From Candidatus Scalindua japonica (GTDB lineage Bacteria; Planctomycetota; Brocadiia; Brocadiales; Scalinduaceae): DNA of 64,000 nt. The position numbers and the translations under genes are program-made. Of this stretch, positions 7,645-64,000 are shown piece after piece. Each line of letters begins with the position of its first letter. Within the stretch, counting starts at the first letter, position 1. The notes under the pieces are model-generated. The model made no database searches and was not told the DNA's origin. It saw nothing but the letters and a program-made list of their open reading frames with translations. Where the stretch lies: NCBI RefSeq assembly GCF_002443295.1, contig NZ_BAOS01000013.1, forward strand, positions 124,001 through 188,000. Direction: 5' to 3'.

Positions 7645-10600
7645 CTGTTTCTCAAAAATTTAAAGGTAGCAAAGGTAAAAGATGGAAATTCAGGCTCATA
7701 TTTATTGCTGCTCCAATCCTGGTAATTATATGTATTCTTTTTACTGTTTTTTACGTGTATATAGCTAAGGATGTCTGGAAAAAACGAGGGATCGAACAGG
7801 GACTTATTTTCGCGCAAGTACAGAGGAACAGAGAAGCTCTAGAGATATTTAAAAAGGAGCTATCCAAGACCCCGGAAGACCCTAAGATCCACTATTACAT
7901 GGGTGTATCATATGCCAATTTAAAGGAATATGATAAGGCAATAGCAAAGCTTGAGGCAGCACTCAAGATCAAACCTGATTTATCAGATGCACATATTAAA
8001 CTTGCAATGATAAGTTTGACAAAAGCACTGGAATTACGAATGCACGGTAAGGCAGAACCACTGGTTCTGGAAAAACTGTTGGAGGCAGAAGGTATATGCA
8101 GGGCTGAAATCGAAAGAAATCCCAATAATAAGAATGCGCATACTTGCCTGGGTGCAATTCACACTGCGCAAGGCTTGCTTGAAGATGCAATAATTGACTA
8201 TGAAAATGCACTGAAACTTGATAGTAAATTATTAAGCGCACGTATGGCAATTGCCAGGTTGTACGCCCAGAGAAATAAAATTGTCCTGGCAGAAGAACAC
8301 TGTAATGTTGTTTTGACAGAAATTGATCATGACAATTATGAAGCACGGATGCTTTTGTCACTGATTTATGAGCAACAGGGTGAATTTCAAAAGGCTGTTG
8401 AATGTTTGAAAAACATTTTAAAGGAAAAACCTGAAGATTTAGCTGTTCACATACAACTTGGACTTTTCTACTTGAAAATGTCAAAGTATGATGAGGCATC
8501 TAAAGTGGTCGAACTGGTACATAAAATAAATCCAGTAATTTTACCTCCTCTCATTGATTATATTGAAGGCTGTGTGCTGTTTCAAAGAAAAGATTATGAA
8601 AATGCTATTGTTTTGTTAAAGAAAGTAACTGAAAAGATATCAGATTATGTACAGTCTCATTATGTTCTGGCCATTGCCTTAGCTGAAAAAGGAAAAATAG
8701 AAGAGGCCAAAGCAGAATTTAGAACTACAATAGACCTTGCTCCAGGATTCATTACTGCTCAAATAAGACTTATAAGGCTTTTGGAAAAAGATGGTGATTA
8801 TAATGAAATGGTCAGATTGAGTAAAGATGTACTTACAATTGAACCTGAAAACCTGGATGCGATGCAGATACTTGGGAATGCGTATATAAAGTTAAGAGAC
8901 TTTACGAGTGCCGAAATTGTATTTCAGGAGATTACCGAGTTAAAACCATCGATGGGAGATATAAACATGGCTCGTTTGAGTTTGGCAAGAGGCCAATTAG
9001 GCAAGTGTGTACGCCAATGTGAACAGATTATTAAGTCAAATCCTGAAGAGGCAGGAGCATATGGTATCCTTGGCCTTGCTTATTTAAAACAGGGGAACTT
9101 TAACAAGGCTATTGAACAGTTTGTAAAGGCTATTGAAAAAAAACAGCGTATAGTAGATACGCACCTGAATCTTACCCTGGCATATGTACTAACCGGAAGG
9201 AACAAGGAGGCAATAAATACACTTGAAAACTTTTTATCCTTTGACCCGAATAATCTGCAGGCAAACACGATACTTGCAAATTTATATGAAAAGGGAGGTA
9301 ATATTGATAAAGCTATTAACATCCTTGTGAATTTGATAACTATAGACCCTGAATACCTTCCGGGTTATAAATTGACCAGTCTATATTTATTACAGGACAG
9401 GGTAGATGATGCCATAGATATATGTAACAGGGCACTTAAACTTGCACCGGAGGATACTAAGTTTTACATTAATCTTGCAGTCGCCCATCAGCAGAAGGGA
9501 GACCCCTCCGCGTCAATATCATCCTGCCGGAAGGCAGGCACACTAAAGCCGGGAATACCTTCCATCAATATACTCATGACAAACTTACATACCGCAAATG
9601 GCGACTTTGATAAGGCTGCCGATTGTTTTTTAAAAGGCAACGAACTGTTTCAGAGAAAAGATTATACAAATGCTGTCACTTTGTTAAGGGAAATGATCAA
9701 TAGGTTACCAGGGTCAGCACAGGCTCACTATATCCTGGCGCTTGCCCTGATGGAGAGCGGTAGTATAAAAGAAGCCATGACAGAATTCAAGACTACATTA
9801 GAGCTCTCCCCCGGATTCATTCCAGCCCAAATAGGTCTGGGAAGATTATATTTTAGAAGTGGAAGGTATTACGAAACAATCAAGTTGGGCAAAGACATTA
9901 TTGACTTCGAGTTCGTTAATCTGGATGCCAGGATCCTCATCGGTAAATCATATATGAAATTACAGGACTTTCAGAATGCCGAATTGATATTTAAAGAGAT
10001 TATTAAGCTGAATCCTTTAATTGGGAAGATCAATATGGCACATTTAAGTCTTGTGAGAGGTCAGATTAGCAAGTGTATACGCCAATGCGAACAGATTATT
10101 GAAACAGATCCGGAAGAGTCAAAGGTGCGCGATATACTGGGCCTTGCTTATGTAAAGCAAGGAGACTTTGATAAGGGTATTGAACAGTTTGCAAAGGCCA
10201 TTAGGAGAATCGAACGTAAGGCAGACACACATTTGAACCTTGCAAAGGCATATGTGGTAACAGGGAAGAGCATAGAGGCACAAAAGACACTTAATGACTT
10301 GCTCTCCTATAACACGAAGAACCTGCAGGCAAATACGATCCTGGCTGACCAGTTCTTAAATGAGGGTGATTTTGATAAAGCCGCGAATTTACTTGAGAAG
10401 GTGTTGGAGATTGATCCTGGCTATCTTCCCGGTTACAAATTAGCATGTTTACGTTTATGGCAGGGCAGGACAGATGAGGCTATAGACTTATGTAACAGGG
10501 CGCTTAAGCTGGCTCCGGAAGATGCCATGTTGCACGTCAACCTTGCTATTGCCTATCAACAAAAGGAGAAATATCCTGAATCAATATCATCATTCAAGAA

Positions 10601-59059: not shown

Positions 59060-59482
59060 ATGGATATTAAAGATTTAATTTTCACAAACAAAGAAATACG
59101 TTTTAAGAAAAATGAGATTATATTTAAAGAGAAGGAAGAAGGTAAGGAGATATATTTTATAGTTTCCGGCATGGTCAAGATTGTGAAAAGAGTATTAGAT
59201 AAAGAAGTAGCATTAGCAATCATTGAACCAGGTGAGTTTTTTGGGGACATGTCTTTAATAACGGGAAATAGACGTGTTGCATCAGCAAAAGCTAACACAA
59301 ACTGTGAGTTGAATACTATGGATAAGAAAACATTTGAATTAAATCTATCAAATAATAAAAGGTTTATGAAAAGTATTGTTGAGTCACTTGCTTTTCGCCT
59401 TGAAGAAACGGATTTGACTCTTAAACATTATCTCCAGAAAACCTTGGTTACTTTACCAGGAAAATCAATTTCTATCTTCTAA
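59060..59482 (+). CDS. Stand-alone cyclic-nucleotide-binding domain protein
   Basis: 140 residues, one CRP-type cNMP-binding beta-barrel: IIFKEKEEGKEIYFIVSGMVKIV, then FFGDMSLITGNRRVASAKANTNCELNTMDKKTFE, the phosphate-binding cassette with its Arg. It ends after the C-helix (SLAFRLEETDLTLKHYLQKTL) with no helix-turn-helix, so it is not a transcription factor by itself. It lies on the same strand upstream of the PAS/GAF sensor and the receiver-CHAT gene and may sense a ligand for that pathway. Confidence 0.85.
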   Translation: MDIKDLIFTNKEIRFKKNEIIFKEKEEGKEIYFIVSGMVKIVKRVLDKEVALAIIEPGEFFGDMSLITGNRRVASAKANTNCELNTMDKKTFELNLSNNKRFMKSIVESLAFRLEETDLTLKHYLQKTLVTLPGKSISIF

Positions 59483-59853
59483 AGAGGTGTCTAAATTGAA
59501 TAAATGGCATAACATACACAACCGCCATTTTTTATAATATAAACTACGTATACCAAGTAGATTATTACTATTCCTAAATCATAATAAGCTTATAATGTTG
59601 AGAGAAAATAGCGTTTTGCCTATTCTAATCCTCATTCATTATAGTGAGGCATGCAATATCTTTCTCTCGCAGACATTTGTGAAGAGTTTTCTGAAAGGAA
59701 ATAGATATTGTTATGCTTCTATAACAAATCATTGTGTTAAATTTACCTGTTTCATTTATCTCTTTTTAATTTCAGTCCCTGGAAATTCGCTATTGTAATT
59801 ATTATTTGATATTTCAATAGCAAATTAATATTTCAGTTTTTTTTAGTTGAAGT
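59483..59853. other. Intergenic region before the sensor gene
   Basis: About 370 bp, very AT-rich. I see no convincing gene. It probably contains the promoter of the sensor/CHAT pair. Confidence 0.4.
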
Positions 59854-59907
59854 ATGATAGAGAAACTCTCAAGGGTCAATAGATGGTTTAAAAAGGAGGT
59901 TGGTTTA

Positions 59908-62900
59908 ATGAAAACTCACAATCAAAACGAATCAACAGACTTAAATCCCAAAATCACAAAGTACATTGAACTGAAAAGGACTGAAATCTTCGATAGCTGG
60001 CTAGACGCTTTAAGGCAGAAATGGAACGATAAAGCAGACCAGAAAATATTTTTAATTAAAAAAAATCAAGAAGAAAGAAAAGGGTTGTTCTCTTTGCTGT
60101 TAAAGTTATTATTGTCATGCAATATCGGATTAGAGGACTCAGATTTAGAAAGAATTTTATACAAGATCAGAAAAGAAGAGTATTCGATTTCAGATTTCTA
60201 TTTTGAAGTAAGGTCTCTTGAGGAAACTATTGAAAAGGTGTTACAACGTTCACACGATATAAAAGCCATAGAACTTATAGATTGTAGAAACCTGACTCGA
60301 ATGAAGCTTTCAAACGTATTCGAAGCCGTTCTTAGAGAAACATCAGAGGTTTATGAATACGTCTGTGAATTGGGTAGCAGGGGATTTTGTCAGTTTGATA
60401 TAAATGGAAAAATAATCTATGCCAATAAAGAAATGCATGTACTCATGGACTCAAAAGCTATTATTGGTAAACAATTTGAATCTCTATTTATAGATGATGA
60501 TCAAGAAGTTAAACAAATGGCGATTTCCGGTAGTCCAGGTGAGAAACCAATAATACAACAGTTGCAATTAATAGTCAATAACAGTAGAACAAAAACAGTC
60601 AAAGCAGAGATCGCTCCTATCTTTATAGATGGCAATAAAATAGGGGGATATGCCAGTATTACAGATATTGAGACGGAGATGACTATCTTTAAGCACTCAC
60701 CTGTAGGAATAGCCAAAGCAAATACTAAAGGAATAATAACTTATGCAAACAAAACGATGTGTGAAGAAATCTGCCAGTCAGATAAATTACAAGGAAAGCT
60801 TGTAAGTGATATATTTGATACAAAAAACTATGAAATTGTTAAAAACCAGCTTAAGAAGCGAATGGAAGATGGATTGAGTAATGAGTATGAGGTTGAAATA
60901 ACCCGCGCCGATGGAAAACAGATTCCAGTTATGATCACTGGCATGTCCGAAAAAAATTCCCTGGGGAAATCAATTGGAACACTGGCAATATTCCGGAATA
61001 TTGAATTGGATAAAGCGGCTAAGGAAATGCATAAACATATTGAAACTATCCATGACGAGCAACAACTTCTTCAAAATGCAGCGAGAATAACAAACGTACT
61101 TGTTCCCTTTGAACTATTCACAGTTTTTGTATATAGTTCTGATATGAACCATGAACGTATACTTTTTTCCTATCCACAAAGAGATGAACAAGAGAGTGAA
61201 AAGGTCCGGTGGCGAGAGCTACCCTCTAATATGGCAAACATTGTAAAAAAGAAGACCGTTTTTACTACGAATGATTTACCTCAACTATCAGAACAGTTCA
61301 TGTTTCAGGGCTTCCGTTCCTTAATCGGATATAATGTCATAAGAGAAGGTAATACGGTAGCATCCTTTTTCCTTCTAAGCAGAAAAGAAGATACTTTCAA
61401 TAAAAAAGATGAAATAAAAAAGCACAAAGATTGTTTTGAATATAAAAAACTACCCTTAGATGAAGCTGTGCTTACCGCTATGTCTTTTGAAAAGGAAAAG
61501 GAATTAACATTTCGACTTAATCTTATTAAAGATATTTCGTCTGCATCTAATAATATTAAGAAGATAGCAGTTGTGATTGTCAAAAGACTCAGTGAACACT
61601 ATAACTGGCAACATGTTTCTATCTTCCAGGTGAATGAAGGACAAAAGAAAATACGACTACTGTGCCAGAAATCCAGTTCTAAAGCATTTTCTTTGTTTAA
61701 AGGTTATGAACAACCTATAAATGCTGGTATCCTTGGCCATGTCTACGCCAACAAAAAAATTGTAAATACGGGAGATGTGCGCGGAGATAGCAAATATAAA
61801 GATAAATATCTGGAAGGTTTTCAAAATACGACTTCTGAACTCTGCCTGCCCATTATCATGGAAGGCGATGTTGTTTGGTTACTCAACATAGAAGATTCAC
61901 AAAAGAATGCTATTTCAAAAAATGAAGAAGATGCTTTAAAGGTAATAATCAACGAAATACAATCATTAGTGGAAAAATCCAATATCCAATATTTTCTCAA
62001 TTCTACATTAGAATTTGCCTCAGATATGGTAATTGTCACCGACAGTAAGGGGAAGATAGAGAGGGTAAATCCAGCATCTTTGAAGTTACTTGGCTATTTA
62101 GAAAAAGAGATGAAAAACAGGTATTTCAAGGAATTTATTAATAATGAGGATGTTACCAAGGATATATTAGATGCTGATAATATTCCCAGTGATGAAGTTG
62201 TTTTGCTGAGTAAGTCTAACAAAGAAGTGAATGTGCTCCTGTCTGTGGTTCGATTACCAGAAGAATTTGCTAAAAAAGTTTTTATTGCCAAAGATTTGAC
62301 ACAACATAAACGATTAGAAAAGATGGCTTTACTGGATAAAATGTACCAAGAGATAGCAACACAGACGAAAACACCTCTTTCACTGGTTTTTAGATGGTTG
62401 AAAAAAATAAAGAGTAAAAACGAGCTTGATTTAGAGATGTTGGAAAAAGCCATCAGGCAGTTGCATAAGGTTGAACTTACCTATGACAGGCTTGCTCTTT
62501 ATAATTATGATGAAAAAAAAGGTGGGTTTTCTCATGATAAAATACGCATAGAGATCTCGGAAGTGATTGATATCGTTATGGATGAGCTTCCTGTGGCAGA
62601 AAAAAATTTAATTAAGTATGAAAAAAAACAAATGCCGTCGATGTACGGTGACATCTTCCAACTTTCTTTTTGTCTCAAAACAATTCTTTCTTATTTGTTA
62701 AGATACGTCCCGGAAGATGAAAAGATACTTGTGAACATATTCAATAAAAATAATATGATTAAATTGCATATAAACGGTTTTTACCCAGAACTATCTAATG
62801 CAGAATATTCGCGAACGTTGGCTGAAATGGCTCTTGGTGAAGAGATTGTGAAAGATTTTATAAAACAACATGACGGAGAATACAAACAAGAGAAAAGCAG

Positions 62901-62958
62901 TGGAAGAATAGAGTTCCACATTGATTTACCTATTGACTTGAGAGAGGAACGAAAATGA
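59908..62958 (+). CDS. PAS/GAF multi-sensor protein with degenerate histidine-kinase core
   Basis: 1016 residues from ATG 59908, which has AAGGAGG at the right distance; the frame is open to ATG 59854. Domains: an N-terminal helical sensor-like region (1-150), PAS (about 155-260, GFCQFDINGKIIYANK), PAS (261-375, HSPVGIAKANTKGIITYANK), a GAF-like domain (375-525), GAF (540-690), PAS (697-810) and a kinase-like core. The core is degenerate. HEIRTPLSL is replaced by TQTKTPLSL (Thr about 818), the N-box Asn is missing (KTILSYLLRY), and the G1/G2 glycine motifs are absent although the tail EEIVKDFIKQHDGEY aligns. It probably signals by protein contact, not phosphotransfer. Its stop overlaps the next start by ATGA. 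Confidence 0.85.
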   Translation: MKTHNQNESTDLNPKITKYIELKRTEIFDSWLDALRQKWNDKADQKIFLIKKNQEERKGLFSLLLKLLLSCNIGLEDSDLERILYKIRKEEYSISDFYFEVRSLEETIEKVLQRSHDIKAIELIDCRNLTRMKLSNVFEAVLRETSEVYEYVCELGSRGFCQFDINGKIIYANKEMHVLMDSKAIIGKQFESLFIDDDQEVKQMAISGSPGEKPIIQQLQLIVNNSRTKTVKAEIAPIFIDGNKIGGYASITDIETEMTIFKHSPVGIAKANTKGIITYANKTMCEEICQSDKLQGKLVSDIFDTKNYEIVKNQLKKRMEDGLSNEYEVEITRADGKQIPVMITGMSEKNSLGKSIGTLAIFRNIELDKAAKEMHKHIETIHDEQQLLQNAARITNVLVPFELFTVFVYSSDMNHERILFSYPQRDEQESEKVRWRELPSNMANIVKKKTVFTTNDLPQLSEQFMFQGFRSLIGYNVIREGNTVASFFLLSRKEDTFNKKDEIKKHKDCFEYKKLPLDEAVLTAMSFEKEKELTFRLNLIKDISSASNNIKKIAVVIVKRLSEHYNWQHVSIFQVNEGQKKIRLLCQKSSSKAFSLFKGYEQPINAGILGHVYANKKIVNTGDVRGDSKYKDKYLEGFQNTTSELCLPIIMEGDVVWLLNIEDSQKNAISKNEEDALKVIINEIQSLVEKSNIQYFLNSTLEFASDMVIVTDSKGKIERVNPASLKLLGYLEKEMKNRYFKEFINNEDVTKDILDADNIPSDEVVLLSKSNKEVNVLLSVVRLPEEFAKKVFIAKDLTQHKRLEKMALLDKMYQEIATQTKTPLSLVFRWLKKIKSKNELDLEMLEKAIRQLHKVELTYDRLALYNYDEKKGGFSHDKIRIEISEVIDIVMDELPVAEKNLIKYEKKQMPSMYGDIFQLSFCLKTILSYLLRYVPEDEKILVNIFNKNNMIKLHINGFYPELSNAEYSRTLAEMALGEEIVKDFIKQHDGEYKQEKSSGRIEFHIDLPIDLREERK

Positions 62959-64000
62959 ATATTAACGTTCTCATCGTTATTCATGATCCGGAACAGAGAG
63001 AGGTAATTGAGGACATAATAAGGAAAGGGCTTTCAGAAGACGGTCATAACGTAGACATACGAAATGCTATTAGTGAAGCGAAAGCAAAGAAAGTGATAAT
63101 AGAAGACCTGAAGTATGATTGTGGATTGGTCATTACCCACTTAAATATTCCCATAGACAATAAAAGCCCTCTTAACGAAGACGAAAAAAGGGGCTTTGTC
63201 TTTTTGAAATGGCTGGAAAATGAAAAACATAATATTCCAAGTATACTTATCTCAGATGCATCCAACCCTGAATTATACAATGCTGCACAGAAAATTGCCG
63301 GCTGCAAGTTGGTGCCGACAAGTGAGAAAATGGAAGATGATCTACTTGAATTCGCCAAAAAAGAGTTGGGTACACAGGAAGAAAAAAAAGAAAAAAGAAA
63401 AATTGTAAACCTTGATATCAATTTAAATTTTGATCAAAATGCGGGTAGTTATGTTCTGAAAGGAGTAGGATTTCCTTATGAAGATCATGGTAATCTCAAA
63501 ATTGATTTAGAAATGATGGAAGATCTAGTAAAACGTTCACGAAATATTGAAGATATCAGAAAATCTAGATGGGAGGAAGAACTTCAAGCCGTTGGAAAAA
63601 TATTAATAAAAGAAATTTTTGTAAAGAATAGAACTTTGCACGAACATTTTTATGCTCAAATTGGTAAGGGAATAGGGATTGAAAATGCAAAGATAAGGTT
63701 TTTAATTGAAAAAGGAGCTAACCCTATTTTTCTTGAAGCTTTATATAGTGCAGATGAAATATCCAATAACTATTGGATGCTTGAAACTCCAATCACTCGT
63801 AGATTACAAAATGTTGAAACCTTAGGATACCCTCTTTTTCATGATGATGAGACAAATGAAGGGCCTATTAATTGCCTTATCATCGAGGCAGATAGCCATG
63901 GATTTGTAGGTATGAAAGATGAAGAGGGAGAGGATATGGTACTGCCTGAACTTAAAAATATAGAATATGAAGCTGATTTTCTTCACGAATTTTTCTGTAA
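62955..64000 (+). CDS. Pseudo-receiver protein with putative CHAT protease domain (partial)
   Basis: 348 codons to the window edge, translationally coupled (ATGA) to the sensor. Residues 1-135 have a receiver-like fold (NVLIVIHDPEQREVIEDII, CGLVITHLNIP, IPSILISDAS), but His62 stands where the phospho-accepting Asp belongs and the late Lys is not evident. A linker and helical segment follow. The stretch from about residue 245 (IRFLIEKGANPIFLEALYS, NYWMLETPITRRL, then INCLIIEADSHGF at 305 and LPELKNIEYEADFLHEFF) matches the start of CHAT (caspase/HetF-associated) domains. The catalytic His-Cys would lie beyond the edge and cannot be checked. Confidence 0.65.
   Translation, partial: MNINVLIVIHDPEQREVIEDIIRKGLSEDGHNVDIRNAISEAKAKKVIIEDLKYDCGLVITHLNIPIDNKSPLNEDEKRGFVFLKWLENEKHNIPSILISDASNPELYNAAQKIAGCKLVPTSEKMEDDLLEFAKKELGTQEEKKEKRKIVNLDINLNFDQNAGSYVLKGVGFPYEDHGNLKIDLEMMEDLVKRSRNIEDIRKSRWEEELQAVGKILIKEIFVKNRTLHEHFYAQIGKGIGIENAKIRFLIEKGANPIFLEALYSADEISNNYWMLETPITRRLQNVETLGYPLFHDDETNEGPINCLIIEADSHGFVGMKDEEGEDMVLPELKNIEYEADFLHEFFC

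What the first reader, a model, noticed from the sequence alone, without database searches (positions are those of the whole stretch)
59060..64000. Sensor-to-protease cassette: pseudokinase coupled to pseudo-receiver-CHAT protein
A PAS/GAF protein whose kinase core lacks the phospho-acceptor His, the N-box Asn and the glycine boxes is coupled by ATGA to a protein with a receiver lacking its Asp (His62), followed by an apparent CHAT protease domain. Both partners of a two-component pair have lost phosphotransfer together, yet remain long and unbroken. This suggests a repurposed contact-based signalling module that controls a caspase-like protease. A cNMP-binding protein sits upstream. CHAT proteases are known effectors in bacterial immunity (TPR-CHAT with gRAMP, gasdermin activation), so the cassette could be a stress- or phage-triggered protease system. 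I know of no described system with this architecture.
Basis: partly seen in the sequence, partly recalled or inferred. Interest (0 to 1): 0.8.

Follow-up and report, generated by a model that had tools for sequence, protein, structure and literature searches.

The report
Phosphotransfer-dead sensor pair controlling a protease
A bacterial sensor and its partner have both lost the chemistry that normally passes a signal between them, yet evolution has kept them together with a caspase-like protease and a recurring third protein, so the signal is probably passed by direct contact; this could show how such "dead" signalling proteins work.

Summary
Read past 64,000, the CHAT domain is complete and keeps its His-Cys dyad (HFAGH413, SSC458). 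The pair is the core of a conserved three-gene cassette: pseudo-histidine kinase, pseudo-receiver-CHAT protease, and an unannotated ~430-aa protein "P". I found 13 loci in several phyla, and none in 199 sampled planctomycetes or 59 relatives. Across the 13, the kinase His is lost in 12 and the receiver Asp in 11, while every readable protease dyad is intact. Both dead parts are under purifying selection (omega ~0.17-0.18), so this is not decay. A sister branch has the same receiver-CHAT protein with an intact receiver behind an intact histidine kinase, and lacks P. The cassette therefore looks like a two-component protease system that dropped phosphotransfer. P also occurs beside caspase, papain and trypsin-type proteases, which suggests a protease substrate/effector or inhibitor. 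The cNMP gene is not part of the conserved unit. A defence role is possible but unsupported. I found no description of this architecture in the papers searched.

The parts
59060..59482 (+). Stand-alone cyclic-nucleotide-binding domain (140 aa, no DNA-binding part). Probably a neighbour, not a cassette member
   Evidence: PF00027 E 8e-22; 371 bp before the next gene; no homologue among the ORFs of the fetched cassette loci
59854..62958 (+). Pseudo-histidine kinase S, 1034 aa: PAS-PAS-GAF-GAF-PAS sensor plus degenerate DHp/HATPase core
   Evidence: Pfam and NCBIfam; motif alignment; homologues in 12 other cassettes
62359..62361 (+). Codon of Thr836, at the phospho-acceptor His position (H-box IATQTKTPL)
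62692..62694 (+). Codon of Tyr947, at the N-box Asn position (ILSYLLRYV)
62955..64000 (+). Pseudo-receiver-CHAT protease C, first 348 of 538 aa. It continues past the window to window-equivalent 64571; the catalytic His413 and Cys458 lie at window-equivalent 64191-64328. Protein P follows at 64593-65891 and an aromatic amino acid lyase at 65915-67597 (L003:6594-7892 and 7916-9598), all outside the window
   Evidence: structural match of a homologue
63138..63140 (+). Codon of His62, at the receiver phospho-acceptor Asp position

Best explanation
The cassette is a two-component system that has dropped phosphotransfer and works by contact. The PAS/GAF protein S senses a signal. Through its DHp-like core, and perhaps the remnant ATPase fold, it binds the receiver-like domain of C across the interface inherited from an active ancestor. 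A signal-driven change in S shifts the pseudo-receiver and opens the attached CHAT protease. The protease then cuts P, the partner made from the next gene, most likely in the flexible linker between the constant N-domain and the variable helical tail (an Arg-Gly motif sits there in all ten complete CHAT-linked P). Cutting frees or activates one half of P. SHOWN by sequence, models or comparison: the losses, the intact dyad, the receiver and separase-like folds, conserved gene order, purifying selection, the phosphotransfer-competent sister branch, and recurrence of P beside unrelated proteases. INFERRED: S-C binding, contact gating, P as the substrate, the cut site, and the biological output (stress response or controlled cell damage).
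For: Thirteen loci carry S and C adjacent, in several with the same ATGA overlap. Kinase His lost in 12/13 and N-box Asn in 12/13; no D-x-G-x-G box in any and no intact G2 glycine box; receiver Asp lost in 11/13, and the two with Asp lack the acidic pair and Lys; protease His and Cys present in all readable members. omega (L039 vs L040): pseudo-kinase core 0.18, pseudo-receiver 0.17, CHAT 0.09, P N-domain 0.08, P tail 0.38. Sister branch: intact DD/Asp/Lys receiver-CHAT directly after HisKA plus HATPase_c kinases in L043, L046, L048, L050; tree split 100/97. AlphaFold model of a homologue of C (pLDDT 82.6): receiver Z 17.9 to ArcA; CHAT Z 21.2 to Craspase TPR-CHAT and 20.1 to separase. P is in 9/10 pseudo-type genomes and 0/9 intact-type genomes (Fisher p 1e-4, not corrected for relatedness). 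P beside caspase C14 (L031), papain C1 (L033) and trypsin (L072). Arg-Gly in the linker in 10/10. Precedent: Csx29 CHAT cleaves its neighbour-encoded partner Csx30 in a flexible loop (PMC10028731).
Against: No binding, cleavage or activation was measured. Azospirillum (L029) and L038 lack P next to C. The P model is poor (pLDDT 56), so its two-domain picture is tentative. Arg-Gly is a short motif (16-47% by chance per linker) in related sequences. The shared loss is evidence for contact signalling only by elimination; the pseudo-receiver could instead bind a ligand or another protein.
Confidence: 0.5

Rival explanations
1. P is not the substrate but a dedicated inhibitor or chaperone of the protease, as securin is for separase. 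S and the pseudo-receiver release it, and the real substrates lie elsewhere.
For: P sits next to proteases of several unrelated folds, which fits a protease-binding domain as well as a substrate. Its N-domain is as constrained as the protease itself (omega 0.08). Shorter P without a long tail exist (L031 362 aa, L073 333 aa).
Against: The fast-evolving tail (omega 0.38), the linker motif in 10/10 CHAT-linked P, and the L072 form in which the P domain is fused to a ~650-aa extension with SGNH-like and lysozyme-like motifs fit a payload better.
Confidence: 0.25
2. The pseudo-receiver is gated by a small ligand or a separate protein, and S is only a scaffold or a separate sensor.
For: Receiver domains can bind ligands, and a receiver-containing CRISPR effector, Cam2, is proposed to do so (PMC11229360). 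How pseudo-receivers are switched is stated to be unknown (PMC12632262).
Against: S and C stay adjacent, often translationally overlapping, in distant genomes, both lack phosphotransfer, and both descend from a kinase-receiver pair with the same gene order.
Confidence: 0.2
3. An ordinary decaying two-component system, or an orphan served by another kinase.
For: Two receivers and one kinase keep a single phospho-acceptor residue (L034, L042, L038).
Against: omega of 0.17-0.18 in both dead domains; long intact frames in distant genomes; the acidic pair and Lys are missing too, so a foreign kinase could hardly phosphorylate most members.
Confidence: 0.05

Closest known systems
Craspase Csx29 (TPR-CHAT) with Csx30
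   Same: Best structural match of the protease part (Z 21). There a CHAT protease is switched by an attached sensor complex without phosphorylation and cuts a partner protein in a flexible loop (PMC10028731).
   Different: No TPR, no CRISPR effector and no RNA. The regulator is a pseudo-receiver plus a pseudo-kinase. P gave no sequence or fold match to Csx30.
Classical two-component systems (HisKA kinase and response regulator)
   Same: Fold, gene order and direct ancestry: the sister branch has intact kinase plus intact receiver-CHAT.
   Different: Phosphotransfer residues are gone on both sides, and the output is a protease rather than DNA binding.
Pseudo-receivers and pseudo-histidine kinases such as DivL
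   Same: Loss of acceptor or catalytic residues with retained fold.
   Different: [quoted passage not shown] Here both partners are dead and genetically coupled, with an enzymatic output.
Bacterial gasdermin and protease operons; VMAP-type conflict systems
   Same: A protease gene next to a dedicated partner protein. The Pseudanabaena P gene sits in a MoxR plus caspase cluster like those in PMC7159879.
   Different: P has no detected homology to gasdermins or to named VMAP components. No switch NTPase in the CHAT cassettes.

Membership tests
CHAT proteases (PF12770, clan CD) | CHAT fold with catalytic His and Cys | tested here: met
   PF12770 E 1.5e-17; HFAGH413 and SSC458 in the full protein; homologue model Z 21.2 to TPR-CHAT
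CHAT proteases (PF12770, clan CD) | Proteolytic activity | not testable with these tools
   needs a bench assay
Response regulator (phosphorylatable) | Receiver fold | tested here: met
   homologue model Z 17.9, rmsd 1.8 A over 121 residues
Response regulator (phosphorylatable) | Acidic pair, acceptor Asp, Lys | tested here: not met
   all absent in the window protein; Asp absent in 11/13 members
Histidine kinase | Acceptor His, N-box Asn, G1 and G2 glycine boxes | tested here: not met
   all absent in the window protein
Craspase-type III-E systems | TPR-CHAT with Cas7-11 and crRNA | tested here: not met
   no TPR match in C by Pfam and no Cas7-11-like gene among the neighbouring ORFs by inspection
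Gasdermin | Gasdermin fold in P | tested here: inconclusive
   P model too poor (pLDDT 56); weak C2-like hits only, Z 5-6
Known anti-phage systems (PADLOC) | Match to a defence-system model | tested here: inconclusive
   no hit for S, C or P; the cNMP protein hits the cNMP-binding parts of Pycsar-type models only

The most novel reading that the evidence does not exclude
A class of two-component systems that signals entirely without phosphoryl transfer: a pseudo-kinase gates a pseudo-receiver by contact, the pseudo-receiver gates a CHAT protease, and the protease activates P, the founding member of an undescribed family of protease-coupled effector proteins that also pairs with caspase, papain and trypsin-type proteases.
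Probability: 0.4. Interest if true: 0.87.

Novelty: new variant of a known kind. Interest (0 to 1): 0.72.

Why it matters
How pseudo-receivers are switched on and off is called a mystery in a 2025 review (PMC12632262). This cassette offers a natural comparison: the same receiver-CHAT protein exists in a phosphotransfer-competent and a phosphotransfer-dead form, each with its own kinase-like partner and a measurable protease output. It also points to an unannotated protein family that recurs next to several unrelated protease types, a pattern typical of protease-activated effectors or protease inhibitors.

Tried and rejected
The cNMP gene as a cassette member: rejected, because it has no counterpart near other cassettes. 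The downstream ammonia-lyase as a cassette member: rejected, found only in this genome. Conservation among planctomycetes: not found in 199 planctomycetes or 59 relatives. A first genome scan with the single CHAT protein found nothing; an alignment with two plasmid homologues was needed. The viral scan with the alignment found nothing, the phage scan with P found nothing, and a viral scan with P could not be run. A search of 382 genomes with the whole receiver-CHAT profile was uninformative because ordinary receivers matched everywhere. P fold: low-confidence model, only weak C2-like beta-sandwich matches at Z 5-6, so no fold is claimed. Profile search of P against PDB gave nothing, Csx30 included. 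The trypsin-like genes beside P in L073 and L074 rest on H..D..GDSG motifs only; a profile comparison with the L072 trypsins was not significant. The SGNH-like and lysozyme-like reading of the L072 fusion is by eye; Pfam, NCBIfam and PDB searches gave nothing.

Full report
OBSERVATION. The window is contig C13:124001-188000 of its genome. The cNMP-binding ORF is at 59060-59482. The 1034-aa PAS/GAF protein S is at 59854-62958. It overlaps by ATGA the protein C starting at 62955. I read the contig beyond the window. C is 538 aa, ends at window-equivalent 64571, and carries a CHAT domain (PF12770, E 1.5e-17) with HFAGH413 and SSC458. A 432-aa protein P follows after 21 bp with no family match, then an aromatic amino acid lyase, then a PEP-CTERM-type protein on the other strand.

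THE CASSETTE IS CONSERVED. tblastn against plasmids found C and P homologues. Azospirillum brasilense and Rhizobium sp. TH2 have S and C in the same order with the same ATGA overlap. An alignment-driven scan of 84,980 species genomes gave 23 loci. ORF comparison shows S-C in 13 loci: this planctomycete-like genome, Desulfobacca, Desulfobacterium, proteobacterial MAGs, Rhodospirillales, Azospirillum, Arenibaculum and several Rhizobiales. P follows C in 11 of the 13. In Azospirillum the third slot holds a pentapeptide-repeat protein followed by SLATT/DUF4231 and TIR genes. L038 has no P in its genome. The cassette is absent from 199 sampled planctomycetes and from 59 relatives, so it is accessory and probably moves horizontally.

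PHOSPHOTRANSFER LOSS IS SHARED AND SELECTED. At the kinase acceptor site the 13 members read T, A, T, G, N, M, H, A, A, A, A, G, A (order). Only L038 has His, and L038 alone keeps the N-box Asn. No member has a D-x-G-x-G box, and none has an intact G2 glycine box. At the receiver site Asp occurs only in L034 and L042, which lack the acidic pair and Lys. The protease His and Cys are present in all readable members. Nei-Gojobori estimates for L039 against L040 give omega 0.18 for the pseudo-kinase core, 0.17 for the pseudo-receiver, 0.09 for CHAT, 0.08 for the P N-domain and 0.38 for the P tail. dS is about 1 to 1.7, so these are approximate, but they speak clearly against relaxed decay.

AN ACTIVE SISTER BRANCH. 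The same scan found receiver-CHAT proteins with intact DD, Asp and Lys (L043, L046, L048, L050 and Chloroflexi L044, L047, L049, L052). In L043, L046, L048 and L050 the gene just upstream is a kinase with HisKA and HATPase_c above Pfam cut-offs and His, N-box and glycine boxes present. The tree of the protease part separates the two branches at 100/97 (midpoint root, so direction is by parsimony). P is in none of the nine sister-branch genomes and in nine of ten pseudo-type genomes (Fisher p 1e-4, not corrected for relatedness). The simplest reading is a kinase / receiver-protease pair that later lost phosphotransfer and gained P.

STRUCTURE. An AlphaFold model of the L034 homologue (pLDDT 82.6) matches receiver domains (Z 17.9, rmsd 1.8 A, 121 residues) and the protease part of Craspase TPR-CHAT (Z 21.2) and separase (Z 20.1). 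The P model is poor (pLDDT 56); weak C2-like matches (Z 5-6) are only a hint.

PROTEIN P. Searches that used P alone found it beside other proteases: caspase C14 on both sides in Pseudanabaena (L031), papain C1 in Sporomusa (L033), and trypsin in an alphaproteobacterial genome (L072). Two more (L073, L074) sit beside proteins with trypsin motifs that did not pass a profile test. Of eight P loci found without any protease query, four have a Pfam-supported protease gene directly adjacent, two a motif-level one, and two (L032, L071) none recognised. In L072 the P domain is fused to a long extension with SGNH-like and lysozyme-like motifs (by eye only). In CHAT-linked P an Arg-Gly lies in the linker before the tail in ten of ten, against 16-47% by shuffling each linker. 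Csx30 is cut by Csx29 in a small flexible loop (PMC10028731), and HetF, a cyanobacterial protein whose profile weakly matches a homologue of C, cuts PatU3 (PMC12288457). P as substrate is therefore my favoured reading, with inhibitor as the main rival.

MECHANISM. Shown: anatomy, losses, intact protease, conservation, selection, sister branch, P-protease association. Inferred: S binds C by the inherited DHp-receiver interface, a conformational signal opens the protease, and P is cut in the linker. The physiological output is unknown. Defence is possible, given the SLATT/TIR neighbours in Azospirillum and the plasmid locations, but PADLOC gives no hit for S, C or P.

KNOWN OR NEW. Full-text searches for CHAT with two-component terms gave no described system of this kind; the library is open-access only and holds no preprints. 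A 2025 review says pseudo-receiver switching is a mystery and that nearly all characterised atypical response regulators are orphans (PMC12632262). The parts are known kinds; the combination, the active/dead sister pair and protein P are new as far as I can tell.

Noticed in passing
L072:5607-9494 (strand -): P domain fused to a ~650-aa extension with SGNH-hydrolase-like and lysozyme-like motifs, immediately followed by a trypsin-like gene, with an EAD1-trypsin gene further on: looks like a protease-released wall- or lipid-degrading effector.
   Followed up: partly
L031:3117-10307: Pseudanabaena plasmid cluster: MoxR ATPase, a caspase-AAA protein, P, and a second caspase; resembles MoxR conflict systems with P as an extra component.
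   Followed up: partly
L047:7061-9483 and L049:7029-9459: Chloroflexi loci in which a receiver-Schlafen/AlbA_2 protein directly precedes an intact receiver-CHAT protease: neighbouring two-component outputs of two different kinds.
   Followed up: no
L045:7702-9756: Desulfonema magnum protein combining a TIR domain with a CHAT domain.
   Followed up: no
L003:7916-9598 (window-equivalent 65915-67597): Aromatic amino acid lyase with intact ASG motif, 23 bp after P and found only in this genome among the cassettes; higher G+C (0.435) than the cassette (0.33-0.36).
   Followed up: partly
L004:7785-10751 (G000:C22): The only other CHAT protein found in this genome: a secreted-looking TPR-like CHAT protein of the common type.
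   Followed up: no
L038:9353-11530: A second, divergent CHAT-like gene sits convergently next to the one cassette that keeps the kinase His and lacks P.
   Followed up: no
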